Shown here one piece after another: positions 6 through 16,266 of a stretch of DNA of 64,000 nt; position 1 is the first letter of the stretch; each line of letters opens with the position of its first letter. A program made the translations under genes and the position numbers. The notes below the pieces were generated by a model. The model was not told the DNA's origin. It did not search any database and saw only the letters and a program-made list of their open reading frames with translations. Source of the DNA: Streptomyces sp. NBC_00525 (GTDB taxonomy: Bacteria > Actinomycetota > Actinomycetes > Streptomycetales > Streptomycetaceae); the NCBI RefSeq assembly GCF_036346595.1, contig NZ_CP107834.1, positions 5,146,001-5,210,000 of the forward strand, written 5' to 3'.

Positions 6-710
6 TCAGGGCCCCTCGGGCCAGAGCCGCGGGGCGACGTCGAAATCGGCGCTCCCCATGACGGCCACGGACACGGCCCAGCCGTCGTCGAACGGTACGT
101 CGCGCAGGCGGCGTACGGCACCGGTATCCGTACCGTCGCCGCGCCCCGGCCGCCGACCGGGGCGCGGGGCGAGAACAGGCATGTGCAGGACGTCCAGCAG
201 CCGGTGTCCGGAAGCCTTGGCGTACGCCTCCTTGCGCGTCCAGAGCCGGGTCGCCTCGGCCTCGCGCCCGGCCGGGGCGAACCCGCGTACGTACCGCGCC
301 TCGTCCGGGTGGAAGAAGCGTTCCACCAGCCGCTCGGCACGTCCGCCCACCACCCGTTCGATGTCCGCCCCCACCTCCCGGCGACCGTTCCGCAGCACGG
401 CGAGCACGGCGACGGCACCGCAGTGGCTCAGATTGAACGCCGGTACCGGCGCGGTGTCCTGGCGGAGCTCCACGTACGGTTTGCCCCACTGCCCCACACG
501 CCAGACCAGGCCCTTCGGCTCCACACCGGTGTAGCCGGACAGAATCTCCCGAGTGGCTCCGCGCGCGACGACGAACCGGCCGCGCCGCGGGGGCGCGAGG
601 CCGTCCGCCCGCGCCGATTCACGGCAGTCCAGGTGCGGCGCCGTGCGCGTCTCGTCTCCCGGCCGGTCCAGCGGGATGACCCACAGGTCGACCGTGTCCA
701 CGGGGGTCAC
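6..710 (-). CDS. Sfp-type 4'-phosphopantetheinyl transferase
   Basis: A 234-residue protein that would transfer phosphopantetheine from CoA to the serine of carrier proteins, here most likely the two ACPs of this operon. Visible motifs are GKP at residues 76-78, FNLSH at 92-96, the Mg-binding GADIE at 114-118 and WTRKEA at 157-162, which together are diagnostic of the Sfp/Gsp class. The GTG start at 710 overlaps the stop of the condensation-like gene by 3 bases, so it is translationally coupled. An open frame runs further upstream, but that part is the antisense-like shadow of the preceding gene. It is the last complete gene before the left edge. Family assignment is secure; its carrier-protein partners are inferred from position. 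Confidence 0.93.
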   Translation of the reverse strand: MTPVDTVDLWVIPLDRPGDETRTAPHLDCRESARADGLAPPRRGRFVVARGATREILSGYTGVEPKGLVWRVGQWGKPYVELRQDTAPVPAFNLSHCGAVAVLAVLRNGRREVGADIERVVGGRAERLVERFFHPDEARYVRGFAPAGREAEATRLWTRKEAYAKASGHRLLDVLHMPVLAPRPGRRPGRGDGTDTGAVRRLRDVPFDDGWAVSVAVMGSADFDVAPRLWPEGP

Positions 711-711
711 G

Positions 712-2217
712 TCACCCCGATTCCGCCGGACGCAGAGCGATCCGCCAGGAGGAGGCGGTCTCCGGCCCGGACGCGGCGGGTTCGCCCTCCGCCGGGTCGT
801 CGCACAGCGCGGCGACGTCCGTCGTGCGGATGTCGCCGTCCACAGCGGCGGTGACCAGCAGGCGCTCGACGGCTCGCAGGACGACCGGTATCCGGTGGGC
901 CGGGAGTTGCAGGGTGTCCGCGTAGAGCGAGAGCCGCAGCGCGTCGGGACGTTCGCGGACGTCGAACACCTCGAAGAAGACCGTGACCGCGTCCCAGTCG
1001 ACCTTCTCCTCCCAGCGGAAGGAGCTCTCCTCCAGGGCCCGGCGCAGCCGGCCGGGAGCGGCCACGGCCACCGCGGGGCCGGCCGCGAGGTCTCGGGTGT
1101 CGTTGAAGTAGCAAGCCAGGTCGCGTCCTTCGCCGACACCACCCTCGCCCCGGATCGCCTCGTCCACCACGCGCGGGTCGAACCGGCCGTGCCGGTAGGC
1201 CCTCAGCGCCTCCATGCCGGCCTGCCGGGCGATGGCGGAGAAGGTCTCCCCTCCGAGGTCCACGGCCAGCGGCAGGTCCTGGGTCGCCGTCACAGCCGTG
1301 TGCCGCAGGGTCTCCCCGATGCGGTTGCCGACGATGAGGTGCCAGCCGAACCGGGGCAGCCGCGCCCCGCCGGAGGTGGCCGCCTCGGTGGCGAGTACGG
1401 TCGCCGCCGCGGTCATGAAGAGGGTCGTGCCCGATACCTTCCACCGTTCCGAGAGCACGGCGACGGCCCGGGGCACCGCCGTGGACACCAGCCCTCCACG
1501 CCAGAAACGCGGCCGGTCCGCCGTCCGGTCCGCCGGTACGGGGAAGACCCGTGCCGGGAAGCGGCTCACCTGCGTCACCGCGTGCCGGACCGCTCGACGG
1601 GTCGTCGCCCGGCCCCGCTCGGAGCCCTCGTCGCGGGCGATGTCGACGGGCTGCGCGGGCGACAGGGGCGGCGGCCATGGCCGCCCCTCCGTACGCGCGT
1701 CCAGCAAGGCCCGCAGGTCGCGCACCACGAGCCGGCTGCCCTGGAGGTCCACGGCCAGCTTGGCCACACCGATGAGGACCGCGACCACGCCGTCGCCGCC
1801 GACCGCCACCGCCGCGCGGAACGCGGGCTCGCCGGACGTGTCGAAGACGGTGCCCCGCAGGCGCGGCTCGGCCGAGGCCACGAACCGGGCGACGGCCTCC
1901 GGGCCCCCGTCCGGCAGCCGGTGTACTTCGACCGTCACCTCGCCGCGGGCCAGCACCCGTTGCCGCAGACCGCCGCTCGCGTCCTCGGCCCAGACGGTAC
2001 GCAGCGCCTCGTGCCGGGAGAGCAGGGCGCCCAGCGCGTCCACAACGTCCTCGGTCCCCAGACCAGGCGGCACCAGAGTGCCGTTGGTCTCGTTGTAGGG
2101 GGTGCCCGGCGCCATGCCGCTCATGTCCCGCCACACCAGCGACTGTCCCCAGGTGGCCCGTTCGTCGGCCTCGCGCGCACCGATGAAGGGAATCCGCCGG
2201 ATCTCATTCCGATTCAC
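712..2217 (-). CDS. Condensation-domain-like protein lacking the HHxxxDG motif
   Basis: A stand-alone 501-residue protein with the length and general pattern of an NRPS condensation domain (conserved N-terminal segment around residues 20-75 with RHEALRTVW, and a long second lobe). In active condensation domains HHxxxDG carries the general base. The equivalent stretch here, at about residues 150-158, reads GVAKLAVDL, so both histidines are replaced (Ala152, Lys153) and only Asp157 remains. It starts at GTG 2217, overlapping the MATE gene by 14 bases, and is followed immediately by the phosphopantetheinyl transferase. In this operon it would be the natural amide-forming or acyl-transferring step between two ACP-bound groups, or a non-catalytic docking protein. 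Membership of the C-domain superfamily is likely; the reaction is unknown. Confidence 0.72.
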   Translation of the reverse strand: MNRNEIRRIPFIGAREADERATWGQSLVWRDMSGMAPGTPYNETNGTLVPPGLGTEDVVDALGALLSRHEALRTVWAEDASGGLRQRVLARGEVTVEVHRLPDGGPEAVARFVASAEPRLRGTVFDTSGEPAFRAAVAVGGDGVVAVLIGVAKLAVDLQGSRLVVRDLRALLDARTEGRPWPPPLSPAQPVDIARDEGSERGRATTRRAVRHAVTQVSRFPARVFPVPADRTADRPRFWRGGLVSTAVPRAVAVLSERWKVSGTTLFMTAAATVLATEAATSGGARLPRFGWHLIVGNRIGETLRHTAVTATQDLPLAVDLGGETFSAIARQAGMEALRAYRHGRFDPRVVDEAIRGEGGVGEGRDLACYFNDTRDLAAGPAVAVAAPGRLRRALEESSFRWEEKVDWDAVTVFFEVFDVRERPDALRLSLYADTLQLPAHRIPVVLRAVERLLVTAAVDGDIRTTDVAALCDDPAEGEPAASGPETASSWRIALRPAESG

Positions 2218-3556
2218 TCATGGCCTCCCGTTGTGCGAACGACGAAGATGTGGGCACGTGGAGTGATCTGGCCGCCCGCACCACGAAGAGCACGGCCGCC
2301 GCACCACCCACGTTGCCCGCGGACACCACCCAGTAGAGTCCCGAAGGGGTGTCGAAATGGCGGGCGGCGTACAGTCCCGACACCGCCAGGACGGTGAAGA
2401 AACCGGCGTTCAGCAGCAGCGCGGTCCGGCCTCTGCCGATCTGCTCCAGCACGGTGAAGGCAGCCAGGGTGACGCCCATCATCAGATAGCTGGGGCCGAC
2501 CACCCGCAGGTAGTGCGCGGCCTCGCGGGCGGCGGTCTCGTCGCCGGTCGCCAGGGCCGCGACCGGACCCGCGAGGGCCCAGACCGCCAGCGCCAGCGGC
2601 AGGTACGCCAGAGCGGTCAGCTCCAGCCCGGAGCGCAGGATGCGGTGCAGACGCTCGGTCCGGCCCGCTCCGCGCCGTTGGTTCATGAGGATGGCGGTGG
2701 CCGTGCCGAGGGCCAGTGCGGGCTGGATGACCACGCCCTGCAGGGTCACGGCCAGCGAGAAGCCGGAGACCACCCCCTCGCCGAACGGCCCCACGATCCA
2801 CAGCTGCGCCAGGCTGAAACAGAACAGCACGAGGAACGTCCCGGCGACCGGCAGACCGACACTCCGCAGGTGGCCGGTCACCTCGCGGACGGCGTGGCCG
2901 CCCCGCCCCGGCGGCAGCGGCCCGCCCCCTCTCAGCGCGTGCCACGCGAGTCCGGCGCCGGCCACGCACCCCACCGTGATGCCGAGCGGGACCGACCACA
3001 GGCCCAGGTCCGCGCCGAAACCGAACACGGCGACGCACGCCACCTCCAGCACGGCCGTCGTGAGGACGATGGCGGCGGCCCGTGAAGGCCGGCCGGCACC
3101 GCGCAGACACGCGGCGCACACCACCGGTACGACGTGCAGCACCGATGCCGCCGCCGTCCAGCGGAGGAACGACATGAACGTCCCACGCGCGTCGGCGGGC
3201 ACGCTGAGCAGTTCGGCCAGCAGCGGCGCCGTCGTGAAGAGCACCAGGAACAGGCCGATCCCGCCGGCGAGCCCGAGGACGAGCGCGCTCCGCAGCAGCG
3301 CAGGTACGTCCTTGAGCCGCTGCCGGCCGGCGGCCAGGGCGACCGCGGTCTGGGCACTGGTCTCGAAAGCGAGGAGCAGTGCTACGAAGAGCTGCGACAA
3401 CGGGATGTAGAGGGACCGGACGTACAGGGCGTCCGAACTCATCCAGCCGAGCATGGCGAAGGACAGAAACGGCAGGGTGACATTGCCCGTCATCGACAGC
3501 GTGATGGGCAGGCCCAACCGCAGGATTTCCCGGCGTTCGCACGCCGTTTCAGCCAC
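2204..3556 (-). CDS. MATE family efflux transporter
   Basis: A 450-residue polytopic membrane protein with about twelve hydrophobic segments in two similar halves, as expected for MATE (multidrug and toxic compound extrusion) antiporters that export small molecules with Na+ or H+ influx. The N-terminal RREILRLGLPITLSM stretch is typical of family members. It starts at GTG 3556, overlapping the stop of the acyl-CoA dehydrogenase gene, and its own end overlaps the next gene by 14 bases, so it is embedded in the biosynthetic operon. The likely role is export of the cluster product or self-protection, which is inferred from context. The substrate cannot be read from the sequence. Confidence 0.88.
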   Translation of the reverse strand: MAETACERREILRLGLPITLSMTGNVTLPFLSFAMLGWMSSDALYVRSLYIPLSQLFVALLLAFETSAQTAVALAAGRQRLKDVPALLRSALVLGLAGGIGLFLVLFTTAPLLAELLSVPADARGTFMSFLRWTAAASVLHVVPVVCAACLRGAGRPSRAAAIVLTTAVLEVACVAVFGFGADLGLWSVPLGITVGCVAGAGLAWHALRGGGPLPPGRGGHAVREVTGHLRSVGLPVAGTFLVLFCFSLAQLWIVGPFGEGVVSGFSLAVTLQGVVIQPALALGTATAILMNQRRGAGRTERLHRILRSGLELTALAYLPLALAVWALAGPVAALATGDETAAREAAHYLRVVGPSYLMMGVTLAAFTVLEQIGRGRTALLLNAGFFTVLAVSGLYAARHFDTPSGLYWVVSAGNVGGAAAVLFVVRAARSLHVPTSSSFAQREAMSESE

Positions 3557-4703
3557 GTCCGACCTCGCCCCGTATGAGCCCCTGGAACAGGTTCAGCCGG
3601 TGGATGTTGCTGGTGCCCTCCATGAACTCCACCCCGCGCGCGTCGCGGTCGAGCTTGTCGAGCAGCGGATGCTCGTACCGCGCCCCCGGACCGAACAGAC
3701 CGAGCGCCTGTTGCGTCGCGTCCTCGGCGAGGTGCGTGGCACGGGCCTTGGCCGCCGAGGCGAGGTAGCCGCCCTCCCGCGCATGGTCGACGGCGACCGC
3801 GGCCCGGTGCAGCAGGGCGCGGGTGGCGTCGATGCGCTGGGCCGTGCGGTCCAGGTCGTGCCGCTGCCAGGCGGTCGGGGCGGAGCGGTGGCGGAGCGCG
3901 TAGGCGTGAGCGGCCCGTGCGATGCCGAGGGCGAGGGCGCCGACACCGGGACGGAACGTGTTGAGCGCCCGCAGGGCGCCCCACATGCCCCGCTGGGTCC
4001 CGGTGAGCCCCTGTCCGAGTACGTTCTCCTCCCGTACCTCGACGTTCGTGAGCCGGATGTCGCATATCTGGTTGGCCCGCAGCCCCAGGGTGGGGATCGG
4101 CTCCGCGACGAAGCCCGGTTGGTCGGTTTCCACCAGAACCGATGTCACACCGAGCGGTCCGGGTGCCGTCCGGGCGAACACCACGCCCAGACGCGCGCGG
4201 GCGGCGTTGCCGCAGTACCGTTTCGCCCCGTTGAGCAGGAGTTTCCCGTCCCGCCGGGTCAGGGTGGTGGTCATCGCGCCGACGTCCGAGCCGCGATCGG
4301 GTTCGGTGAGACCGAAGAAGGTCCAGGTGGGGCGGGAGAACAACGCGTCGTAGAAGCGTTTTTTCTGGTCGTCGTTGCCGAGCGCCAGCAGCAGGCCGCC
4401 GGAGAGGGAAGGGCCGGGGGCGCCCAGCAGGAGGCCCGGATCGCCCACCGCCAGCTCCTCGATGAAGACCACACGTTCCAGGGTGCTCATGCCGGAGAAG
4501 CGGTGGCCGTCGACGGTGATCGGAGTGGGTACGTACTCCTCCGGCACCGGGCTGGTCGCCAGGTACGCCATGCAGCTCAGATGCAGCAGTTCGCGCACCG
4601 CGTCGGGATCGCGGTCGGCGGCCAGAGCGTGCTCGGCCATCTCGGCGGCCCAGTCCGCCGCGATTCCCCGTGCCGTGAGCAGTCGGTCGTCGAGCAGTGT
4701 CAT
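3549..4703 (-). CDS. Acyl-CoA (acyl-ACP) dehydrogenase family protein
   Basis: A 384-residue flavoprotein of normal length for acyl-CoA dehydrogenases, which oxidise the alpha-beta bond of acyl thioesters using FAD. TEPDRGSD at residues 133-140 is the FAD/substrate-binding signature, and FMEGTSNIH near 360-368 carries the catalytic glutamate (Glu362) in its usual position. This is the only dehydrogenase of the operon with an obviously intact catalytic base. The ATG at 4703 overlaps the preceding stop (ATGA); a longer frame upstream is only the shadow of the neighbouring gene. In this cluster it probably introduces a double bond into an ACP-bound acyl chain. Substrate and position of desaturation are unknown. 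Confidence 0.9.
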   Translation of the reverse strand: MTLLDDRLLTARGIAADWAAEMAEHALAADRDPDAVRELLHLSCMAYLATSPVPEEYVPTPITVDGHRFSGMSTLERVVFIEELAVGDPGLLLGAPGPSLSGGLLLALGNDDQKKRFYDALFSRPTWTFFGLTEPDRGSDVGAMTTTLTRRDGKLLLNGAKRYCGNAARARLGVVFARTAPGPLGVTSVLVETDQPGFVAEPIPTLGLRANQICDIRLTNVEVREENVLGQGLTGTQRGMWGALRALNTFRPGVGALALGIARAAHAYALRHRSAPTAWQRHDLDRTAQRIDATRALLHRAAVAVDHAREGGYLASAAKARATHLAEDATQQALGLFGPGARYEHPLLDKLDRDARGVEFMEGTSNIHRLNLFQGLIRGEVGRG

Positions 4704-5359
4704 GCGGCCACCTCTTCGGGGTCGGGCCGGCGCACATAGGCATCGGCGACGAGGGCGGAAGCGTGTGCGCAGGCGCCGGGCCCGTCGGCGCGATAGCCGA
4801 AGGCGCCCAGCAGCCGCAGCAGCGCACGATCGCATCCGGTGAGGGTGTCATGGGCGTACGCGAGAGTGGCCTCGGAGAGTTCACCGGGCTCCGCGCCACT
4901 GATCAGGGTCTCCACGGTGAGCTGGTCGGCCTTCGCATCGGCGAGCCCGCCCTTCACCATCTGCTGCATCAGCAACGCCGCCCCGCCGACCGTGCGGCCT
5001 CGCAGGTACTCCAGGCAGGCGTCGAGCAGTCGGCAGGACTGGCCCAGGCGCACCCAGACGAGGCCGAGGTCCCAGGCCCCGCCGGTGGCTTCGGCGGCGC
5101 CGGATGTGGCGGAGGCGAGGCGACCGAACCTGATCGCTCCGTCCGGGGTCGAGAGGACCGTCGTGCTCCTCGCGGCGCCTTCCTCGCTCTCCAGCATCCG
5201 GGTCGGCAGGGCGACATGCCCCGCCGGGCCGTGGGGGACACGGTCGGGGCAGACCTCTGCCCGCAGGTCCTCCAGGGCGGTCGGCAACCCGTGGTTCCGA
5301 GCCGCGGCCGCGGCCCGGCACCACGGTGGGAGGCCGCCCGGTTCGGCGGTGTCGGTCAT
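4700..5359 (-). CDS. Acyl-CoA dehydrogenase C-terminal-domain-like protein (half-size)
   Basis: A 219-residue protein resembling only the C-terminal helical domain of acyl-CoA dehydrogenases: the helix DLGLVWVRLGQSCRLLDAC and the following RGRTVGGAALLMQ segment look like the RLGLA...QFG..Q signature. The N-terminal and middle FAD-contact domains are absent. It starts at ATG 5359, overlaps the upstream KAS-like gene by 4 bases and the downstream full-length dehydrogenase by 4 bases. A plausible role is as partner subunit of the adjacent full-length enzyme, as in heteromeric acyl-CoA dehydrogenases; this is inference. It could also be a decayed duplicate, but tight coupling on both sides argues that it is maintained. 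Confidence 0.65.
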   Translation of the reverse strand: MTDTAEPGGLPPWCRAAAAARNHGLPTALEDLRAEVCPDRVPHGPAGHVALPTRMLESEEGAARSTTVLSTPDGAIRFGRLASATSGAAEATGGAWDLGLVWVRLGQSCRLLDACLEYLRGRTVGGAALLMQQMVKGGLADAKADQLTVETLISGAEPGELSEATLAYAHDTLTGCDRALLRLLGAFGYRADGPGACAHASALVADAYVRRPDPEEVAA

Positions 5360-6318
5360 GAGACGCACTCCTCGTGTTCTGTGGGAACGGCGACGTGGCT
5401 GCCGGAGGAGGTTTCCGCGACCACTCCGGACAGATCGAGCAGAGCCAGGGACAGCACACCCTGCCCGGGGGCGAGATCGAGCAGGGCGGCATAGGGCGGC
5501 AGCCCGCCCCGTGCCAGGCGGTCCAGCAGCGCGACCCAGCCGCCCGTGCAGGGCATGCCGGGCTCGACGAGGACCGCTCCGCCCGCGGCGTCCGGCACCG
5601 CCCCCGGGTCGATGCCGGGCCCGAGGACGACGAAGGTGGAACGCAGCGGAACGGCAAGCCGCTCCAGCAGGGCCGGAACGGCGCGGGCCACGGACCCGGC
5701 GGACACGAGCGAGGTGGCCACCGGCCCTCCGCCGTTCCGGGGCCCCGCCTCGACCAGCAGTGCCGCCATGGCGTCGCCCGCGATCCGGTGCTCGGGACGC
5801 AGCGGGACATCGTAGGGCAGGTCCGCCTGGTCCGCTGCCAGCACCAGCGCCCGCCGGGGCCCGGCGGCCGCCGACAGGTACGCCGCCGCCAGTCGCAACG
5901 CCGTGAACGGAGCTGCCGACCCCTGGTCCGAAACGGCGAACGGCATGGGGGAACCGGGCAGCAGGTCGTTCAGACGGCATGTCGCGGACCTGCGGAAGTC
6001 GGCGTCAGGGGCCTGGTGCGCGAGCGCCACCACGTCCATCGGCCGATCCGCGCCGCCGAGCAGCGGCACCAGCGCCTCGGCCATTTCGACGAAGGTGGTG
6101 CGCCGCGCGGTCGACAGGTCGAAGCCGGCACGCAGACCCACACCGTGGAGATCCGCGAGGTCCCGCAGATACTCCCGCAGCGGTGGGTGCAGCGGATCGG
6201 GCTCGTACGGCAGCCCCCGGCCGAACTCCCGGTACGCGCCTCGGAGCACGCGCAGCGGCGTGATCCGAGGCGGGGTGTCCGTCGCGGTCGCGACGACCGG
6301 TGGTTGAGCGGTGTACAC
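5356..6318 (-). CDS. KAS III-like thiolase-fold protein without the catalytic cysteine
   Basis: A 320-residue protein of about the length of FabH/KAS III enzymes, with the alternating hydrophobic pattern of the duplicated thiolase fold (VALAHQAPDAD, PRRALVLAADQ, STFVVLGPGI). At the nucleophile position, where the second homologue in this operon has TEQACASG, this one reads SDQGSAA (residues 130-136), so cysteine is replaced by Ser134. A GMPCTGG segment near residue 270 stands where the Asn-containing loop should be. It starts at GTG 6318 directly after the ACP gene. It may be a non-catalytic partner of the active KAS III-like protein, or an acyltransferase or hydrolase with a serine nucleophile. 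The fold is fairly sure, the function unknown. Confidence 0.62.
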   Translation of the reverse strand: MYTAQPPVVATATDTPPRITPLRVLRGAYREFGRGLPYEPDPLHPPLREYLRDLADLHGVGLRAGFDLSTARRTTFVEMAEALVPLLGGADRPMDVVALAHQAPDADFRRSATCRLNDLLPGSPMPFAVSDQGSAAPFTALRLAAAYLSAAAGPRRALVLAADQADLPYDVPLRPEHRIAGDAMAALLVEAGPRNGGGPVATSLVSAGSVARAVPALLERLAVPLRSTFVVLGPGIDPGAVPDAAGGAVLVEPGMPCTGGWVALLDRLARGGLPPYAALLDLAPGQGVLSLALLDLSGVVAETSSGSHVAVPTEHEECVS

Positions 6319-6321
6319 CGG

Positions 6322-6627
6322 TCAGCTCCCGGCCGACTGTTCGACGACATACCCGGCGAGGGAGCCGACCGACTCGAAGTGGTGCTGTTCGAGCGTGTCG
6401 GTGTCGAACTCCAGGGACAGCTCGTCCTCGATGGCCATCAGCAACTCCAGCACACTCGTGGAGTCCAGACCGAGGTCGTCGAACAGACGGGTGTCCCCGT
6501 TCGCTTCGGGCAGGTCCCGCTTCAGCACTTGGGTGAGCGCGGCGATGATGTGGGCGGTGATCCGGTCCGGTTCGGCGCCGGAGGACGCGGCGGCGGTGGC
6601 GGGCGGCTCGATCGTTTCGTGGGTCAT
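6322..6627 (-). CDS. Acyl carrier protein 1
   Basis: A 101-residue free-standing carrier protein. The phosphopantetheine attachment site is GLDS at residues 53-56 (Ser56), followed by a helix-II pattern with acidic residues (ELLMAIEDEL). The start at ATG 6627 is set by GGAG 8-9 bases upstream; a longer open frame merges with the decarboxylase gene on the other reading frame and is not coding. It lies just downstream of the decarboxylase and ATP-grasp genes, the same neighbourhood as the BtrI carrier in butirosin biosynthesis, so it may carry the amino-acid unit. The alternative is that it carries the fatty acyl chain and ACP 2 the amino acid. Confidence 0.92.
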   Translation of the reverse strand: MTHETIEPPATAAASSGAEPDRITAHIIAALTQVLKRDLPEANGDTRLFDDLGLDSTSVLELLMAIEDELSLEFDTDTLEQHHFESVGSLAGYVVEQSAGS

Positions 6628-6671
6628 GGTTCTTCTCCAGCTGGTAGGGGCGGATACGGACGGGTGGGGGT

Positions 6672-9367: not shown

Positions 9368-9433
9368 GGTGAATGCCTCTCGGTTCTTCGGACGCGGGCA
9401 GAGGGCGTCGCGGGGGCCGGGAACGGGCTCGGG

Positions 9434-10366
9434 TCAGTGGCGGAAGGCCATGGCGGAGAAGGTGGCGCCCAGGCCGACCGTGGCCATGAGGTACAGGTCC
9501 CCCGGCCGCAGCCGCCCCGCCCTGCGGGCGGCGACGAGGTTGACGAACGGGTCGGCGCAGAAGGAGTGGCCGGTCAGGGCCATGTTGTCGAGGAACAGCC
9601 GGTCGAGCGGTATGCCGAGGTGCTTGGCGATACGCGTCCAGGAGATGCGGTTCACGTTGTGCGGCAGCACCAGCGCGATCCCCGACAGGTCGGTGCCGGC
9701 CTGCTCGGCGGCGCTGTGCAGCACCTCGCCGAGCGCCTCGGCGTAGATCCGCTGGAACTCCAGCACGGACTCCTTGTCCCGCGACTGGAACTCGTAGAAC
9801 CTGCCGTAGGTGCGCGTGGCGTACCCGAGGAGGACGTCCCGGTCGCCGTCGGCCCCCACCAGCACGGCGGCGGCCGCCTCGCCGTTGACGCTGGCGCCGG
9901 GCACCTGAAGAGCCGCTTGGGTGAAGGCCTTCTCACCCACCAGGACGAGCGCGAGGCCGTCCGGGTCACCGTCCTCGGCCAGCAGCCTGCCGCACACGTC
10001 GACCGCGAACAGACCCGACGCGCAGGCCTGTTCGGTGAGCGCGAAGGGAACGGCGTTCGGGAACTCGCCCTTCGCCAGGATGCCGTCCAGCGGGCTGTGC
10101 GGATAGGGGGAGACCTCCGGCATGGTCCTGGCCTGCACGATGTACCTGACGCGCTCGCGCACACCGGCCGGCGAGGTCAGCCCGCCGATCGCGGACAGCA
10201 GCAGGTCACCGGGCAGTGCGTCGAGCCCGTGACGTACCTCCCGCAGCCCGAACACCCTGCGGTACACCTTGATTTCCGCGTCGGTGAGACCGAGCCTGCT
10301 CTGGAGGCTGCCGATGTCGATGCGATCCGGCGGCAGGTAGGCGGAGACTTCACGCAGCGCGGTCAC
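9434..10366 (-). CDS. KAS III-like (FabH family) condensing enzyme or acyltransferase
   Basis: A 310-residue thiolase-fold protein of FabH length. TEQACASG at residues 111-118 carries the nucleophile Cys115, and LVLPHNVNR carries His236. The third catalytic residue, Asn in FabH (GNTxxAS), is replaced: the loop reads TGHSFCAD, with His267 at that site. KAS III relatives with an altered third residue (for example CerJ with Asp) transfer acyl groups to O or N rather than condense carbons, so the activity here is open. GTG start at 10366 overlaps the ACP 2 stop. It probably works with ACP 2 and may pair with the cysteine-less homologue encoded at 5356-6318. Confidence 0.84.
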   Translation of the reverse strand: MTALREVSAYLPPDRIDIGSLQSRLGLTDAEIKVYRRVFGLREVRHGLDALPGDLLLSAIGGLTSPAGVRERVRYIVQARTMPEVSPYPHSPLDGILAKGEFPNAVPFALTEQACASGLFAVDVCGRLLAEDGDPDGLALVLVGEKAFTQAALQVPGASVNGEAAAAVLVGADGDRDVLLGYATRTYGRFYEFQSRDKESVLEFQRIYAEALGEVLHSAAEQAGTDLSGIALVLPHNVNRISWTRIAKHLGIPLDRLFLDNMALTGHSFCADPFVNLVAARRAGRLRPGDLYLMATVGLGATFSAMAFRH

Positions 10367-10686
10367 GAACCGGCTCCGCTGTGATCCTTCGCGGAGCCGA
10401 GGCCGCTCCGCTCCGGCCCGTCGCGCAGGTCCAGTTGGCCTCGCAGGTACTGTGCGAGGGCCCGCACCGTCGGATGGTCCCACGCCGCGGTCGGCTCTAT
10501 GGCCAGGTCCAGATACGTCTCTATGTCCCCGCACAGCACGAAGGCGGACACCGATTCCAGTCCGTGGTCGGCGAAGTCGACATCGGGCAGGATCTGACCG
10601 GACGGGACACCGACATGCGTGGCGATCTGTTCGGCGAGCCACGCCTCCAGCCCTTCCTGGCTGTGCGGATGGATGTTGCTCGACAA
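10363..10686 (-). CDS. Acyl carrier protein 2
   Basis: A 107-residue carrier protein with the attachment site HGLES at residues 41-45 (Ser45). The likely start is TTG at 10686 because a perfect AAGGAGG sits 8 bases upstream and no ATG or GTG fits; TTG starts are uncommon and may lower expression relative to ACP 1. The stop overlaps the KAS III-like start. It is preceded by the two long acyl-CoA dehydrogenases and the fatty acyl-AMP ligase, so it is the best candidate for the carrier that holds the activated fatty acid. Confidence 0.88.
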   Translation of the reverse strand: MSSNIHPHSQEGLEAWLAEQIATHVGVPSGQILPDVDFADHGLESVSAFVLCGDIETYLDLAIEPTAAWDHPTVRALAQYLRGQLDLRDGPERSGLGSAKDHSGAGS

Positions 10687-10731
10687 CGTCGCAGCCTCCT
10701 TGGTCGTTGGTTCGGGGGTCGGGTCGGTGAT

Positions 10732-12453
10732 TCACATGCCGAGCGGGCGGGGGCTGAGCTCCAGTGACAGTCCCGCCTCCCACCGGTTCGTCAGCTCTTC
10801 GAAGAACCGGTCGGCGACAGCGGGGTCGAGCGGCGGCGCGGCTGCCCCGAACGCGCGGGTCAGGACACCGGTCAGCCAGGCCGGGTCCGACAGGAACGGG
10901 TCGGCGGTGCCCTGCCGGGCGTGCCGCGCCACCCCCGCGCACGCTCCGGCGGCCAGGCAGACGCTGTACGCCTCGGCGAGGTCCGCCGGTCCGGCACCGC
11001 CGCCCGGCCCGACGTCCCGAGCGCCCAGGTGTGCGAGCCCTTCGTGGGCCCGGTCGAGGAGGGCGACCGCCGCTCGGTGCGCACGGCCCGGCGCGCCGGT
11101 GCCGTCCGGGCCGGCGCGCAGCGCGTCGGCCAGGGATTCGTTCTGGCCGACGCGCAGAGTCAGGCGGCCGAAGTCGAGCGGCGGGAGCGGCGCATGAAGG
11201 TCGAACAGGTCGGCGTCGCCGTCCCCGGCCACCCGGTGCCGCGTACCGGACCGCCGGATGTTGCGGGACAGCACCGTGAGCAGCGGTAGTGCGGCGGCGA
11301 GGCAGGCGGCCCGTCCGGTGTGGCCGAATCCGACCGGTGCGAGGTCCCGCAGGTGTTTCTGGAACAGCGCGTGCTCGCCGTCGCGTACGTAGAAGTGCGC
11401 GCCGAGGACACGGGACAGACGGTCCATGACGTTCAGCAGCCGCCCGGAGACGTACTGCTTGGTGAGCGGGGCGAGGATGGCAGTCTGGTCCGGACGCACG
11501 TGCAGTGCTCTCGCCGCCACCGACACCAGAGCCTCGCAGAGCATCAGGTCCGCGAAGCACTCGGCCAGCTCCCGCCGCACGAGCGGGATGTCGACCGCTC
11601 GGCGGCCGTAGAGCCGCCGGTCGGACACGAAGCGCAGAACGGTGACGAGCCCTGCCTCCACGCCGCCCGCCCACATGCCCGGCAACGCCGTCCTGCTCAC
11701 TTGGAACGAGCGCATCGCCGTCTCGATGCCCATGCCCACGTCCCCGAGCACGCTCTCCGCGGGCACGGGGCACTCGGCGAACTCCACACCGCCGAGCTGC
11801 ACGCCGCGCAGACCCGATGTGCGGAACCTCGGCACGTCCTTCAGGCGCCCGCCGTCCAGTGCCGTGCGGGACACGAGGAACTGGCTGTGGCCGCGGGCGC
11901 CCGGAGCGTCGCCGGTACGCGCGAAGAGGACGAAGGCGTCGGCCCTGCGGGCGTTGGCTATGACCTCCTTCCTGCCCGTCAGCCGCCAGTCCCCGCCGGG
12001 AAGGCGGACCGCGCGGAAGGAGGCGCGTGAGAAGTCGTTGCCGTGCGGCAGCTCGTGGTAGGCGGTCGCCACCTTTCCTCCGGCCAGCAGCAGGTCGGCC
12101 AGGCTCCGGCGCTGCCGCTCGTCACCGGCCGTCCATACGTTCACGGACGCCATGAGCGCGCTCGCGCCGTAGCCGAGCCCGAGGCAGGCGTCCCGCCCGT
12201 AGACCACGCGCATGACGCGGACGAGCTCGGGTACATCGTTCAGCCTGCCGCCGAGGGCGGTGGGCACGAACTCCGCGTTCAACCCGAAGGAGTCGAGCAG
12301 GCGTTCTCCCTCCGCGTGCATGGCCCCGGCCTCGTCCGCGTCCAGCAGCGCACGGGCCCCCGTGGCGCCGGTGGTGTCCTGGAGCGGCCCGAAGAGGCGG
12401 GCCAGGGCCGTACCTCTGTCCTCGGCCGTTCTCGGAGTGTCGGGGTGTCTCAT
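10732..12453 (-). CDS. Long acyl-CoA dehydrogenase-like protein (573 aa)
   Basis: A 573-residue relative of acyl-CoA dehydrogenases with a C-terminal extension beyond the usual ~380 residues. The N-terminal part has the family pattern, including HELPHGNDFSRASF (the usual TEPxxGSD region, about residues 130-145) and TGRKEVIANARRAD. At the place of the catalytic YEGT motif there is GFGHTGRAA, so I see no Glu base. Paired long dehydrogenases next to a fatty acyl-AMP ligase and ACP occur in ramoplanin- and enduracidin-type clusters, where they make 2,4-dienoyl chains; I infer a similar role here. ATG 12453 overlaps the preceding stop (ATGA). Confidence 0.82.
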   Translation of the reverse strand: MRHPDTPRTAEDRGTALARLFGPLQDTTGATGARALLDADEAGAMHAEGERLLDSFGLNAEFVPTALGGRLNDVPELVRVMRVVYGRDACLGLGYGASALMASVNVWTAGDERQRRSLADLLLAGGKVATAYHELPHGNDFSRASFRAVRLPGGDWRLTGRKEVIANARRADAFVLFARTGDAPGARGHSQFLVSRTALDGGRLKDVPRFRTSGLRGVQLGGVEFAECPVPAESVLGDVGMGIETAMRSFQVSRTALPGMWAGGVEAGLVTVLRFVSDRRLYGRRAVDIPLVRRELAECFADLMLCEALVSVAARALHVRPDQTAILAPLTKQYVSGRLLNVMDRLSRVLGAHFYVRDGEHALFQKHLRDLAPVGFGHTGRAACLAAALPLLTVLSRNIRRSGTRHRVAGDGDADLFDLHAPLPPLDFGRLTLRVGQNESLADALRAGPDGTGAPGRAHRAAVALLDRAHEGLAHLGARDVGPGGGAGPADLAEAYSVCLAAGACAGVARHARQGTADPFLSDPAWLTGVLTRAFGAAAPPLDPAVADRFFEELTNRWEAGLSLELSPRPLGM

Positions 12454-14291
12454 GTCGTTCTCTCCGGGGTGAGTTCCGGTTGGGCCGTACCGTCGCGGGG
12501 TACCGAGCCGGGCACACCGGCCTCCCGCGTCCCGGCGCGGACCCGTCGCACCGACGTGAGCAGCCGCTCGAAGACGTCACCGGCACCGCCGGGCACCGGG
12601 TCCGACGCCTCGCCCGGCAGTACGGGGCGGTGGACCCGAGGCAGCGCCAGGGTCAGGACCGCCTCCAGCCGCAGGTCCTCGTCGCCGTACGGGGCCGGCC
12701 GCGGCCCCGCCTCGCCGGGGCTGTCGTCCCGGCCGGCCGACCACAGGTGGACGGCTGCCGCGGCGGTGAAACACCACTCGTATCGCCGGGCCAGGTCGAA
12801 GGCGTGCGGCGGCACGTCCTTGCCCGCGAGACCGCCGAGCGCGGCCATCTCCTCGTGCAGCGCGTCACGGGCGCTCAGGAGGGACCGGGCCAGTTCCGTC
12901 AGCCGGAGTCCGGCCGGCCGGTCGGCGGCCCGTTCGCGCAGCCGGGCCACGGCCGCACCGAGTCCCTGCACGATGCCGCACCCGCCGGAGGAGACGAGGC
13001 CGAGCCGGGTGAGGTCAAGGTCCGGCATCGGGGCGGAGGGGTCGGTGATTGCCGCGAGGGCCGGGGCGTCGACGGTCCCGTTCCCGTGCGCACGGACCAG
13101 GGTCGGGAACTGCCGGATGAGGGCGTGCCGGTTGACGACCGTGCTGCCGTCGAAGATGCCGACGATGCGGTGGTCACGTTCCAGCTTCTGGAACCGCCCG
13201 TCCGCGTAGGCGCCGTCCAGGAAGCTCCGGGCGCCGAGGACCTCGGCGCAGTGGCCGATGAGCTCGTCCACCGCGGACGGCACCACGGCCTTCGCGACGG
13301 CCGACATCACCGGGAGCTCTCGGGGAAGGCACTGCGCCGCCCGTCCCAGGACACGGCTGACCGCCTCACCGGCGTACGCCAGGGCATACGCCTGCCCGAG
13401 CAGCCGGGCGGGTCGGCCGAGTTCGACCACACGGCGGCCGTAGAGCTCTCGTTCCTCGGCGAACTCCGTCGCCAGATCGAGGGCGTGGTCGGCCGCGCCC
13501 AGGGAGAGGGCCGTGCACACCGCGCGGGTGACCGGCAGGACCCTCAGCACGGTCTCCAGGCCCGTGCCCTCGGCGCCGACGAGCGCGCCGGGCAGAGCGC
13601 GTGCCCGGCGGCAGGTGAAGCCGCTGATGTCGGCGCCGCGAATCCCGTGGGTGGGGATCTTCGGCGTGCTCCGGACGGCGCCGGGCTCGTTGCGGCGCTT
13701 GTCGAGCAGGAGCAGGCTCAGGTCGCGGGGGCCCCTCCCCTCACCGGTGCGTGCCAGCAGACAGACCAGATCCGACCGGGTGCCGTTGTTGATCAGCCAC
13801 TTCTCCCCGTCCAGGGTGTAGCCGCCGTCCCCGGTGCGCACCGCGGAGAACTCGTCCGCCGTCAGGTCGCTCCCGTGCGGCCGTTCCGTGAGCCCCCAGG
13901 CGACGGGAGCGCCCGCCAGCACGTGCCCGGCGAGGGCGCGGGTCTGCTCAGGGGTGCCCGCCGCCCAGACGCACACGCTTCCCAGGAACGTCTTCGTGTG
14001 TGCGACGGCCACGGTCAGGTCCCTGCGGGCCACCACCCGTACGAGGTCCAGCAGCACGTCGAGCCGGCTGAGCGATCCGCCGTGCGCGGCGGGTACGTAG
14101 TGACGGCCGAGTCCCCACTCGTCCAGGGTCCGGACGGCGGCGGCGGGGAACTCCTCCGCCCGGTCCCAGCGGGCACTGGCCGCGTACGAGAAGGGCCGGG
14201 ACGGATCGCGGGGGTCGCCGAGCCATTCGCCGAGAGACGCGGCCGGGCCGTCCGCAGGCGCCGGGGGCAGGGGCGTGGCGGGGGCGTTCAC
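12450..14291 (-). CDS. Long acyl-CoA dehydrogenase-like protein (613 aa)
   Basis: A 613-residue paralogue of the next gene, again longer than typical acyl-CoA dehydrogenases. GLTERPHGSD and GEKWLINNGTRSD mark the flavin-binding half; IFDGSTVVNRH stands where YEGTxxINR normally lies, giving Asp in place of the catalytic Glu. GTG start at 14291 overlaps the fatty acyl-AMP ligase stop (GTGA); the longer upstream frame is shadow. With the ligase, ACP 2 and its paralogue it forms a cassette that probably activates and dehydrogenates a fatty acid while it is bound to the carrier. The Asp could still act as base, or the protein could be a structural partner. Confidence 0.85.
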   Translation of the reverse strand: MNAPATPLPPAPADGPAASLGEWLGDPRDPSRPFSYAASARWDRAEEFPAAAVRTLDEWGLGRHYVPAAHGGSLSRLDVLLDLVRVVARRDLTVAVAHTKTFLGSVCVWAAGTPEQTRALAGHVLAGAPVAWGLTERPHGSDLTADEFSAVRTGDGGYTLDGEKWLINNGTRSDLVCLLARTGEGRGPRDLSLLLLDKRRNEPGAVRSTPKIPTHGIRGADISGFTCRRARALPGALVGAEGTGLETVLRVLPVTRAVCTALSLGAADHALDLATEFAEERELYGRRVVELGRPARLLGQAYALAYAGEAVSRVLGRAAQCLPRELPVMSAVAKAVVPSAVDELIGHCAEVLGARSFLDGAYADGRFQKLERDHRIVGIFDGSTVVNRHALIRQFPTLVRAHGNGTVDAPALAAITDPSAPMPDLDLTRLGLVSSGGCGIVQGLGAAVARLRERAADRPAGLRLTELARSLLSARDALHEEMAALGGLAGKDVPPHAFDLARRYEWCFTAAAAVHLWSAGRDDSPGEAGPRPAPYGDEDLRLEAVLTLALPRVHRPVLPGEASDPVPGGAGDVFERLLTSVRRVRAGTREAGVPGSVPRDGTAQPELTPERTT

Positions 14292-16120
14292 GCGGTCGTT
14301 CCGGCGGCCGGCGCCGCGTCCAGGGCGGGCCCGGAGGCCGCGGACGGCATGCCGGAGGCGGTGCCCGTACGGCTGTCGAGCACCACGCCGCGCAGTGTTC
14401 CGTCCCGCAGCGCCCGTGCCATGGCGCCGCGCTGGATCTTGCCGCTCGTGGTGCGCTCCACCGTGCCGGGCCGTACGAGGACGACGGCGGCCAGCGCCAC
14501 GGCGAACTCCTCCCGGACACGTCGGCGGACCGCGCCGGCCACCGCCTCCGCCCCCTCGGAACCGATGAGGCCGCCGCGGCACTCCTGCACGACGGCGATC
14601 TCGTCGGGCGTTTCGGGCCCGCTTTCCTCAAGCCGGAAGGCCGCGCCCACGCCCGCCGCGAGCGACGGGTGCGCCGTACGCACCACGTCCTCGATGTCCT
14701 GCGGATACAGCTTGCGGCCATGGGCGATCAGCATTTCCTTGATCCGCCCGGTGACGTACAACTGCCCGTCCCACACGCTGCCGAGGTCCCCGGTGCGCAA
14801 GAAGCCTCCGGTGCCGTCGGCGGTCACGGCGTCGAAGACGCCTGCGGTGGCCTCGGGGTCGTTCCAGTAGCCCGGTGACACGCTCGCGCCCCGCACCCAG
14901 ATCTCGCCGACGTGGCCGTCCGGGACCACGGCCGCGGTGTGCGGATCGACGACGACGCCCCTCTCGGACGACCAGAATCCGCTCGCCACGACCCGGCGAA
15001 CCGCCCCGGCGTCGCCGGCCGCGGTGCCGGTCAGTGGCACGAAGCGGTGCCGGGCGAGCGCGCCGGCGTCGACCTGTGTGACGACCGGTCGTTCACCTCT
15101 GGGGGAGAGCGTGGCCGCCAAGGTGGTCTCGGCGAGCCCGTAGCCGGGAGACATGGCCTCCGGACGGAAACCCGCCGCCGCGAACCGGTCGGTGAACGCG
15201 GCGAGGACGGACGCGCGTATCGGCTCCGAGCCGTTCACCGCGTGCCGCCAGCGCGAGAGATCCAGGGCCGCGATCTGCTCGTCCGTGATCTTGCGCAGGC
15301 AGAGGTCGTAGGCGAAGTCGGGGCCACCGGACAGATGGAGGTCGTACCGGTCGACCGCCGTCAGCCACCGCACGGGGTGGCGAAGGAAGACGGACGGTGC
15401 CATCAGCACGGACGTGCCGCCGAGGAACAGGGGGACGGCGAGGTGCGCGATGAGCCCGAAGTCGTGGTACATGGGCAGCCACCCACCGCAGCGCGTTCCC
15501 TCCCCGGCGTCGACGCATGCGGCGAAGTGGGCCACATTGCTCATCAGGTTCCGGTGGGTGATGATCACCCCCTTCGGCCTGCCCGTACTGCCCGAGGTGT
15601 ACTGGAGGTACGCGGGGTCCTCGGCCCTCGCAGCGGACACGGATGCGGGCACCCGGTCCCCGGAGGCCGGGAACGACTCCGGCACCAGCAGGTCCGTACC
15701 GGCCAGTCCGTTGTCTGCGAGCCAGTCGGCGACGTCCGGCCGGTGCGAGGCGTCGCACAGCACCGCGTGCGCGCCGCTGTGCCGTACGATCCCGGCGAGT
15801 CGGCTCTGCTGGCGCCGGTAGCCGGCCGGCGAGGGCGCCGGAACCGCGACCAGCCCGGCCAGCAGGCACCCGAGGAAAGCGGTGGCGAAGGACACCCCGG
15901 ACTCGTGGACGATCAGGATTCGGGAGCCGGCCGGGTACCGGGCCGACAGGGCCGCCGCGACGCCCTGCGCGTCCTGCAGCAACCCCGCGTACGTCGACTC
16001 CGCCCGGACGGCGCGGTCCTCACCGGGCGAGATCTCCAGAACCGCCTGACGCCCGGGGTGCCGCTCAGCCCGGTCGGCCAGCAGCTCGGGGAATCCTCTA
16101 AAGCCCTGCGCCACACGCAT
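14288..16120 (-). CDS. Fatty acyl-AMP ligase (FAAL), first gene of the operon
   Basis: A 610-residue adenylate-forming enzyme of the FAAL branch. YTSGSTGRPKG is the P-loop (about residues 173-183), GWLPMYHDFGLI is a FAAL-specific motif, SPGYGLAETTL follows, and LRTGDLG and a C-terminal TTSGKIQR with the adenylation lysine are present. FAALs activate a fatty acid as acyl-AMP and pass it to an ACP rather than to CoA. The start at ATG 16120 has GAGG 8 bases upstream. It is the promoter-proximal gene of the minus-strand operon; the 146-bp gap to azlC must hold the operon promoter, though I cannot point to -35/-10 boxes with confidence. Confidence 0.93.
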   Translation of the reverse strand: MRVAQGFRGFPELLADRAERHPGRQAVLEISPGEDRAVRAESTYAGLLQDAQGVAAALSARYPAGSRILIVHESGVSFATAFLGCLLAGLVAVPAPSPAGYRRQQSRLAGIVRHSGAHAVLCDASHRPDVADWLADNGLAGTDLLVPESFPASGDRVPASVSAARAEDPAYLQYTSGSTGRPKGVIITHRNLMSNVAHFAACVDAGEGTRCGGWLPMYHDFGLIAHLAVPLFLGGTSVLMAPSVFLRHPVRWLTAVDRYDLHLSGGPDFAYDLCLRKITDEQIAALDLSRWRHAVNGSEPIRASVLAAFTDRFAAAGFRPEAMSPGYGLAETTLAATLSPRGERPVVTQVDAGALARHRFVPLTGTAAGDAGAVRRVVASGFWSSERGVVVDPHTAAVVPDGHVGEIWVRGASVSPGYWNDPEATAGVFDAVTADGTGGFLRTGDLGSVWDGQLYVTGRIKEMLIAHGRKLYPQDIEDVVRTAHPSLAAGVGAAFRLEESGPETPDEIAVVQECRGGLIGSEGAEAVAGAVRRRVREEFAVALAAVVLVRPGTVERTTSGKIQRGAMARALRDGTLRGVVLDSRTGTASGMPSAASGPALDAAPAAGTTA

Positions 16121-16253: not shown

Positions 16254-16259
16254 TAGCGT
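16254..16259 (+). promoter_or_regulatory. Putative -10 hexamer of azlC (leaderless)
   Basis: TAGCGT ends 7 bases before GTG 16267, and no Shine-Dalgarno fits; this spacing predicts transcription starting at the start codon. Confidence 0.45.
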
Positions 16260-16266
16260 GCGGAGC

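What the first reader, a model, noticed from the sequence alone, without database searches (positions are those of the whole stretch)
6..16120. Uncharacterised ACP-based lipid-amide cluster joining a butirosin-like amino acid module to a fatty acid desaturation module
One 13-gene overlapping operon combines (a) a fatty acyl-AMP ligase, ACP and paired long acyl-CoA dehydrogenases as in ramoplanin/enduracidin dienoyl-chain synthesis, with (b) an ATP-grasp ligase, LysA-type decarboxylase and ACP as in butirosin 4-aminobutyryl-ACP synthesis, and (c) a stand-alone condensation-domain-like protein plus KAS III-like pair, exporter and PPTase. No modular NRPS or PKS is present. I infer a polyunsaturated acyl chain joined to an amine made by ACP-bound decarboxylation. 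I do not recognise it as a described cluster.
Basis: partly seen in the sequence, partly recalled or inferred. Interest (0 to 1): 0.8.

Follow-up and report, generated by a model that had tools for sequence, protein, structure and literature searches.

The report
Lipid-enamide cluster without assembly line
A Streptomyces gene cluster, one of a widespread family in actinobacteria for which no product was found, probably makes an unsaturated fatty chain joined through an unusual amino-acid link (dehydro-beta-alanine), perhaps to an amino sugar, without the giant enzymes normally used.

Summary
The operon is real: 14 minus-strand genes at 6-16120, 8 of 13 junctions overlapping. Two cassettes are joined. 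(1) FAAL-ACAD-ACAD-ACP, the unsaturated-chain cassette known from rotihibin and ramoplanin. (2) A conserved seven-gene module: KASIII, ATP-grasp ligase, BtrK-like decarboxylase, ACP, Cys-less KASIII partner, ACAD-C-terminal-like protein, ACAD. The module fits not butirosin GABA chemistry but the published logic for N-acyl-dehydro-beta-alanine (Dba). In one genome the whole module adjoins a diaminopropionate gene and an NRPS with four A, five condensation-family and one TE domain, as Dba lipopeptides of enamidonin type would need. A Tritonibacter homologue fuses decarboxylase and dehydrogenase. All seven genes are in 53 of 80 named loci kept; 15 of 80 carry the window-type FAAL plus two-ACAD version, in eight genera. 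The cluster probably extends left of the window (NodB-type deacetylase, predicted glycosyltransferase, inositol-phosphatase-family protein). I propose an unsaturated acyl-Dba amide, possibly on an amino sugar. Shown: gene content, conservation, active-site residues, predicted folds. Inferred: substrates, order of steps, acceptor, product. New variant of a known kind; eight searches of an open-access library found no such NRPS-free cluster.

The parts
14288..16120 (-). FAAL: fatty acyl-AMP ligase, 610 aa
   Evidence: PF00501 E 1e-62; the high-scoring NCBIfam matches include several fatty-acyl-AMP ligase models, none above its cut-off
12450..14291 (-). ACADL1: long acyl-CoA-dehydrogenase-like protein, 613 aa; Asp381 at the catalytic-base position in 19 of 19 rows
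   Evidence: PF02770/PF00441/PF02771; conservation
10732..12453 (-). ACADL2: second long ACAD-like protein, 573 aa; no acidic residue at the base position (His378 in 19 of 19 rows)
   Evidence: PF00441/PF02770; conservation
10363..10686 (-). ACP1, 107 aa, TTG start; phosphopantetheine Ser45 in 13 of 13 rows
   Evidence: PF00550 E 1.7e-12
9434..10366 (-). KASa: KASIII-family protein with Cys115-His236-His267 (His where FabH has Asn, by my recall)
   Evidence: PF08541; PDB profile hits FabH, CerJ, ChlB3, PqsC; Cys/His/His in 79 of 79 rows
7988..9367 (-). ATPg: PreATP-grasp/ATP-grasp ligase, proposed L-Asp to ACP2 ligase
   Evidence: PF18604 E 2e-16, PF02222; alignment A1
6672..7991 (-). DEC: PLP-dependent decarboxylase, closest solved structure BtrK
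   Evidence: PF02784/PF00278; BtrK 7ru7/2j66 282 bits against 179 for the next, a DAP decarboxylase
6322..6627 (-). ACP2: proposed aminoacyl carrier; Ser56 in 80 of 80 rows
   Evidence: PF00550 E 1.3e-10
5356..6318 (-). KASb: KASIII-fold protein without the catalytic Cys, proposed partner of KASa
   Evidence: PF08545 E 0.009, below cut-off; AF2 pLDDT 85, Foldseek best E 3e-9, FabH/ChlB3/PqsBC among hits; motif around DQG, Gly133 in 59 of 60 rows
4700..5359 (-). ACADc: short protein like the ACAD C-terminal domain, proposed partner of ACADs
   Evidence: PF00441 in 12 of 23 members, below cut-off in the window protein; PDB profile hits SCAD E 5e-5; hhalign to ACADs found nothing
3549..4703 (-). 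ACADs: full-length ACAD, proposed N-acyl-beta-alanyl-ACP desaturase; Glu362 at the base position in 75 of 76 rows
   Evidence: PF02770 E 3e-20
2204..3556 (-). MATE-family exporter
   Evidence: PF01554 E 1e-33
712..2217 (-). Condensation-like protein; HHxxxDG region reads KLAVDLQ, catalytic His replaced by Lys
   Evidence: PF00668 at its cut-off, 30.6 bits; alignment
6..710 (-). Phosphopantetheinyl transferase
   Evidence: PF01648 E 1.6e-13; best NCBIfam model HetI, below cut-off

Best explanation
An NRPS-free line that makes an unsaturated N-acyl-dehydro-beta-alanine (acyl-Dba) lipid and hands it to an amine. Proposed steps, all inferred: the PPTase arms both ACPs. FAAL loads a fatty acid on ACP1 and ACADL1/ACADL2 insert one or two double bonds. 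ATPg ligates the side-chain carboxyl of L-Asp to ACP2 and DEC removes the alpha-carboxyl, leaving beta-alanyl-ACP2. The KASa/KASb pair takes the acyl group onto Cys115 and transfers it to the amine, forming an amide rather than a C-C bond. ACADs with ACADc desaturates the product to acyl-Dba-ACP2 (the olenamidonin authors write the other order, acylation of an already desaturated ACP unit). The acyl-Dba is passed to an acceptor amine and the product leaves through MATE. Acceptor, much less certain (about 0.4): an amino sugar or aminocyclitol made with the deacetylase, glycosyltransferase-like and phosphatase genes just left of the window. The confidence below is for the acyl-Dba part.
For: Module: KASa+ATPg+DEC in 69 and all seven genes in 53 of 80 named loci. 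Published logic: bolN (BtrK-like) and bolQ (ACAD) deletions in bolagladin; KASIII homologues proposed to N-acylate beta-alanyl-ACP (PMC7756342, passages and section 7). AFC-BC11 uses a FAAL, a decarboxylase shown to act on carrier-bound Asp, and KASIII-like proteins, without C domains (PMC12186527, passages). Product link: in genome G015 (L038/L153) the complete module adjoins an SbnB over its NCBI cut-off, an SbnA-like protein of the family whose L154 member passes the SbnA cut-off, and an NRPS with 4 A, 5 condensation-family, 4 carrier and 1 TE domains; [quoted passage not shown]). Fusion: Tritonibacter L148 has DEC and ACADs in one 812-aa protein, with KASa, KASb, ACADc-like and ACP2 relatives and an adenylating enzyme instead of ATP-grasp, whose best stand-alone solved relative is 3wvn (VinN by my recall). 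KASa Cys-His-His in 79 of 79 rows. Acyl cassette: same order as rthH-I-J-K (PMC8552735, passages). Acceptor: glycosyltransferase-like gene in 11 of 20 FAAL-type genomes searched, each within 20 kb of the FAAL; deacetylase, aminotransferase and dehydrogenase genes.
Against: No characterised gene of such a pathway was matched by sequence except BtrK: I did not reach the bol, afc or aut sequences, so the match is of logic and gene content. Asp rather than Glu is not shown, and BtrK is a Glu enzyme. S. rimosus (G048; L036, L154) has SbnA, SbnB and an NRPS of the same make-up but no close ACADs anywhere in its genome (best 36% identity, other contigs), so its product may be saturated or the link may fail there. 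FAAL+ACADL clusters do not form one clade in a tree with weak backbone. The condensation-like protein lacks its catalytic His here. Nine of 20 FAAL-type genomes have no near-full-length glycosyltransferase-like gene, so the acceptor may differ or be absent. hhalign of ACADc to ACADs found nothing.
Confidence: 0.7

Rival explanations
1. Butirosin-like: ATPg loads L-Glu through its gamma-carboxyl, DEC gives GABA-ACP2, which is acylated; the ACADs desaturate something else.
For: DEC is closest to BtrK among solved structures; ATP-grasp activation is, by my recall, also BtrJ's way.
Against: The KASIII and ACAD pairs go with the module and butirosin has none by my recall; DEC is 68-69% identical to the DECs of the three loci with Dpr-type genes and NRPS (L035, L036, L038), whose likely product type carries dehydro-beta-alanine.
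Confidence: 0.12
2. Iterated variant as in AFC-BC11: ATPg and DEC add several beta-alanines on ACP2 before acylation, giving an oligo-Dba lipid.
For: AfcQ/AfcP iterate and AfcA acylates the trimer (PMC12186527 passages).
Confidence: 0.12
3. KASa/KASb makes a C-C bond (Claisen-type or PqsBC-like), so the product is a ketone or a heterocycle and not an amide.
For: KASa is a true KASIII relative with conserved Cys; a Cys-less partner resembles PqsB/PqsC.
Against: Third triad residue is His267, not Asn, in 79 of 79 rows; KASIII-like relatives without Asn are described as acyl transferases.
Confidence: 0.08
4. ATPg and DEC are metabolic enzymes acting on free amino acids, unrelated to the ACPs.
For: DEC belongs to the LysA superfamily.
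Against: ACP2 is found in 67 of 80 loci and keeps its Ser in 80 of 80 rows; DEC is below NCBI's LysA cut-off and closer to BtrK than to DAP decarboxylases.
Confidence: 0.03

Closest known systems
Bolagladin Dba starter genes (bolC, M, N, O, P, Q), Burkholderia gladioli
   Same: ACP, BtrK-like decarboxylase, two KASIII homologues, ACAD: ACP-bound Asp proposed to be decarboxylated, N-acylated, desaturated
   Different: bol uses a VinN-like adenylating enzyme and an NRPS; BolM/BolP have Ser/Thr for Cys. Here ATP-grasp ligase, Cys-His-His KASIII, extra ACADc, no NRPS
AFC-BC11 cluster (afc), Burkholderia cepacia complex
   Same: No C-domain NRPS; FAAL, one-protein-per-step carrier chemistry, KASIII-like acyl transfer, Dba
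   Different: [quoted passage not shown] here two ACPs, ATP-grasp, ACADL pair
Enamidonin/autucedine/olenamidonin, Streptomyces
   Same: Published as acyl-Dba peptides with a 3-oxoacyl-ACP synthase proposed to join acyl group and ACP-bound unit (PMC11204786 passages; the 2022 Org. Lett. autucedine paper was not read)
   Different: Those have an NRPS and two Dpr residues; the window has no NRPS or Dpr genes, but has FAAL and two long ACADs
Ramoplanin/enduracidin/rotihibin acyl cassette
   Same: FAAL-ACAD-ACAD-ACP order as in rthH-I-J-K
   Different: There the chain goes to an NRPS C domain; here, I propose, to a KASIII pair
Butirosin btrI-J-K
   Same: ATP-grasp ligase, BtrK-type decarboxylase, ACP (BtrJ being ATP-grasp is recalled)
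   Different: No KASIII or ACAD pairs there by my recall; GABA rather than Dba

Membership tests
N-acyl-Dba (bolagladin-type) module | BtrK-like decarboxylase beside a free-standing ACP | tested here: met
N-acyl-Dba (bolagladin-type) module | Two KASIII homologues | tested here: met
   KASa by sequence, KASb by predicted fold
N-acyl-Dba (bolagladin-type) module | Acyl-CoA-dehydrogenase-family desaturase with catalytic base | tested here: met
   ACADs Glu362 in 75 of 76 rows
N-acyl-Dba (bolagladin-type) module | VinN-like adenylating enzyme | tested here: not met
   No such gene in the operon besides the FAAL; ATP-grasp ligase at that place; adenylating enzyme present in the Tritonibacter homologue
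N-acyl-Dba (bolagladin-type) module | Asp is the loaded amino acid | not testable with these tools
   needs an assay
Enamidonin/autucedine cluster | NRPS and diaminopropionate genes | tested here: not met
   not among the operon genes and the six left-flank and three right-flank genes scanned
FAAL-ACAD-ACAD-ACP unsaturated-chain cassette | Four genes in this order | tested here: met
   published order
FAAL-ACAD-ACAD-ACP unsaturated-chain cassette | Sequence kinship with ram/end/rth ACADs | not tested
   sequences not reached
Canonical decarboxylating KASIII (FabH) | Cys-His-Asn triad | tested here: not met
   Cys-His-His in KASa, no conserved Cys in KASb
NRPS condensation domain | HHxxxDG with catalytic (second) His | tested here: not met
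   Lys in the window, L050 and L059; His in the other 15 of 18 rows with a residue there
Butirosin BtrI/J/K pathway | Glu loaded and GABA-ACP formed | not testable with these tools
   needs an assay
NodB chitooligosaccharide deacetylase (left flank) | Score above NCBIfam cut-off | tested here: not met
   156.8 bits against 240, though NodB is the best family

The most novel reading that the evidence does not exclude
A widespread actinobacterial class of lipids, unsaturated acyl-dehydro-beta-alanine amides of an amino sugar or aminocyclitol, made by an NRPS-free chain of separate enzymes in which a Cys/Cys-less KASIII pair with a Cys-His-His site is the amide synthase and an ATP-grasp ligase replaces the adenylating enzyme; in logic a counterpart of Nod factors (deacetylase, glycosyltransferase, unsaturated acyl transfer).
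Probability: 0.33. Interest if true: 0.8.

Novelty: new variant of a known kind. Interest (0 to 1): 0.6.

Why it matters
The same module stands beside NRPS, PKS, glycosyltransferase-like genes or none of these in many actinobacteria (242 encoding loci for the ATP-grasp ligase in genome contigs; 642 protein clusters at E <= 1e-60 for one relative), so it looks like a portable maker of enamide-linked lipids. If right, a gene signature (KASIII, ATP-grasp, BtrK-like decarboxylase) would predict an enamide in a new cluster, the Cys-His-His KASIII pair would be a new type of amide-forming enzyme to test, and the FAAL plus two-ACAD type, seen in eight genera among the 80 loci kept, would be a product-less cluster family directly open to expression.

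Tried and rejected
Considered and set aside: LysA/DAP decarboxylase (below the NCBI cut-off, nearer BtrK). GABA chemistry kept as a rival. Cispentacin: ACP2 hits the AmcB ACP model at 30 bits, cut-off 80. First protein search with KASb found only 3 relatives, a limit of word search; a BLAST family of 80 KASb members came out of the loci. hhalign ACADc against ACADs: nothing; KASb against KASa weak, probability 18%, so the KASb fold was predicted. A KASa+ATPg+DEC tree of 73 tips does not make FAAL+ACADL clusters one clade; midpoint rooting first gave a meaningless clade. S. olivaceus (autucedine) was looked for among ATPg relatives and is not among the 120 listed of 642. I first took S. rimosus as the product link; a check found no close ACADs in its genome, so the link now rests on G015. 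Plasmid searches with ACADs and ATPg gave 2 and 3 records. The glycosyltransferase reading of the left-flank protein rests on a relative's model with low TM-scores, about 0.33. Paper searches without a matching cluster.
Full report
Observation. The window lies in a 7.1 Mb genome at C1:5146001-5210000; the nearest named copy is in Streptomyces sp. AC1-42W. Fourteen minus-strand genes run from FAAL (start 16120) to a PPTase (end 6); see parts. With the starts I chose, 8 of 13 junctions overlap and the longest gap is 66 nt. Codon-position G+C supports the frames where plotted. AC1-42W carries the same fourteen genes at 92-99% identity (L050).

A conserved core. The ATP-grasp ligase has relatives in 25 of 246 genomes of the genus at E <= 1e-20, own genome included. 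Loci of 19 of the 24 others were returned and all 19 have KASa, ATPg and DEC together; of the remaining five, G235 was read later (L049) and lacks KASa, and four weak matches (E 1e-22 to 1e-35) were not read. In 20 larger stretches, 13 have KASa-ATPg-DEC-ACP2-KASb-ACADc-ACADs in that order as called. The seven others: L036 and L049 lack genes, L042 is a 7-kb contig, L045 has an uncalled short gene where ACADc is expected, and L034, L043 and L048 contain miscalled genes. Neighbours vary: NRPS, PKS, MMPL or MATE exporters. A scan of named genomes gave 242 encoding loci, the best 80 kept: 69 have KASa+ATPg+DEC, 53 all seven genes, 9 (all Amycolatopsis by title) ATPg alone. Some loci are cut by contig ends. 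Twenty-five have a FAAL at 40% identity or more, 14 of those both long ACADs; L092, whose FAAL is in pieces, makes 15. By title the 15 are Streptomyces, Streptosporangium, Actinomadura, Microbispora, Micromonospora, Actinoplanes, Nonomuraea and Glycomyces: eight genera. FAAL without the two ACADs adds Thermobifida, Cellulosimicrobium and Sphaerisporangium.

What the parts say. DEC: BtrK at 282 bits, next a DAP decarboxylase at 179. KASa: KASIII family with CerJ, ChlB3 and PqsC among profile hits; Cys115, His236 and His267 in 79 of 79 rows, where FabH has Asn for the last by my recall. KASb: KASIII fold by prediction (pLDDT 85; Foldseek best E 3e-9) without the Cys. ACADs keeps Glu at the base position in 75 of 76 rows; ACADL1 has Asp in 19 of 19 and ACADL2 His in 19 of 19, so ACADL1/ACADL2 may also be an active/inactive pair. 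ACADc resembles the ACAD C-terminal domain (12 of 23 members; SCAD, E 5e-5). The rows were kept by a length filter and a few genomes occur twice (for example L036 and L093).

Published logic. In bolagladin the BtrK-like BolN is needed for production and loss of the ACAD BolQ gives beta-alanine in place of Dba; KASIII homologues are proposed to N-acylate beta-alanyl-ACP (PMC7756342: passages and the whole of section 7). AFC-BC11 is made without C domains by FAAL, adenylating enzyme, decarboxylase and KASIII-like enzymes (PMC12186527, passages). [quoted passage not shown] a 3-oxoacyl-ACP synthase is proposed to ligate acyl-CoAs to the ACP-bound Dba (PMC11204786, passages), i.e. acylation after desaturation, the reverse of the order I give and of what the AFC-BC11 authors argue. 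The autucedine paper itself was not read.

Linking the module to Dba. In L035, L036 and L038 the module, or part of it, adjoins NRPS genes. Best case is G015 (L038, L153; its ATPg is identical to a protein named S. venezuelae): complete seven-gene module, ACADs at 50% identity, SbnB at 416.9 bits against a cut-off of 326.9, an SbnA-like protein of BLAST family F20, and an NRPS with 5 condensation-family, 4 AMP-binding, 4 carrier and 1 thioesterase stretches (the first 350 codons of the open frame were left off). In S. rimosus (G048; L036, L154) SbnA and SbnB pass their cut-offs and the two NRPS proteins together show 5, 4, 4 and 1 of the same (200 residues left off), but only the first five module genes are there and the genome's best ACADs match is 36% on another contig. 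Four modules with one epimerisation fit the enamidonin backbone; the product of neither cluster was shown. Tritonibacter mobilis L148 (plasmid) has DEC and ACADs in one 812-aa protein (45% and 34% identity), KASa relatives, KASb (E 2e-26), an ACADc-like protein (E 3e-11), ACP2 and MATE relatives, and an adenylating enzyme. That enzyme's best stand-alone solved match is 3wvn at 251 bits, against 160 for its best single gramicidin-synthase domain; 3wvn is VinN by my recall. This suggests that ATP-grasp and VinN-type enzymes do the same step.

Left flank. Beyond the window edge lie LuxR-type regulators (L009:12085-12978, 10731-12017), an unnamed-family protein (8922-10124), a polysaccharide deacetylase (7802-8944) and an inositol-phosphatase-family protein (6832-7809), in the same order in AC1-42W (L145). 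A relative of the unnamed protein (L058) models with pLDDT 79 and its best Foldseek matches are GT-A-type glycosyltransferases, E 5e-5, but TM about 0.33. Near-full-length relatives are in 11 of 20 FAAL-type genomes searched, each on the FAAL's contig within 20 kb, and in both PKS-type genomes. Some other loci add a class-III aminotransferase, a Gfo/Idh/MocA dehydrogenase and a sulfotransferase; L058 also has a myo-inositol-1-phosphate synthase, which may be a housekeeping gene. Hence the guess of an amino sugar or aminocyclitol acceptor. Against it: of the 15 window-type loci, 6 show neither MATE nor condensation-like gene in the stretch (L051, L052, L053, L067, L103, L115), though the wider flank of L115 has both (L134), and 9 of the 20 genomes lack the glycosyltransferase-like gene.

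Verdict. New variant of a known kind, interest 0.6. Inferred, not shown: Asp as substrate, the order of steps, amide formation by KASa/KASb, chain unsaturation, acceptor and product.

Noticed in passing
L092 (Streptomyces sp. AC1-42W): A second window-type cluster in the same genome with FAAL, DEC and condensation-like genes in pieces (one TAG in a FAAL match): looks like a decaying copy.
   Followed up: no
L057, L060, L071, L073, L080, L081, L084, L085, L090: Nine Amycolatopsis loci have the ATP-grasp ligase alone, without the rest of the module in the stretch held; perhaps another use of this enzyme.
   Followed up: no
L046, L047, L048: Module next to proteins that by eye look like a diiron oxygenase, an aminoacyl-tRNA-synthetase-like ligase, an extra ACP (L046, L047) and a methyltransferase.
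   Followed up: no
L043, L044: Module beside a PKS with ketosynthase, KR and DH domains (L044), with MATE, condensation-like and glycosyltransferase-like genes.
   Followed up: partly
G000:C1:2963465-2966844: A second FAAL and long-ACAD pair in the window's own genome (43% and 32% identity).
   Followed up: no
L147, Streptomyces sp. CA-256286 plasmid: A DEC relative (59%) beside an adenylating enzyme, a carrier protein and ectoine-type genes: the decarboxylase used with another loader.
   Followed up: no
L036/L154 (S. rimosus): Dpr-type NRPS cluster with the module's first five genes but no close ACADs in the genome: may make a saturated beta-alanine version.
   Followed up: partly
window 16258-17064 and 18618-19904: AzlC-family and AI-2E-family transporter genes on the other strand right of the operon; the operon seems to begin at the FAAL.
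   Followed up: no
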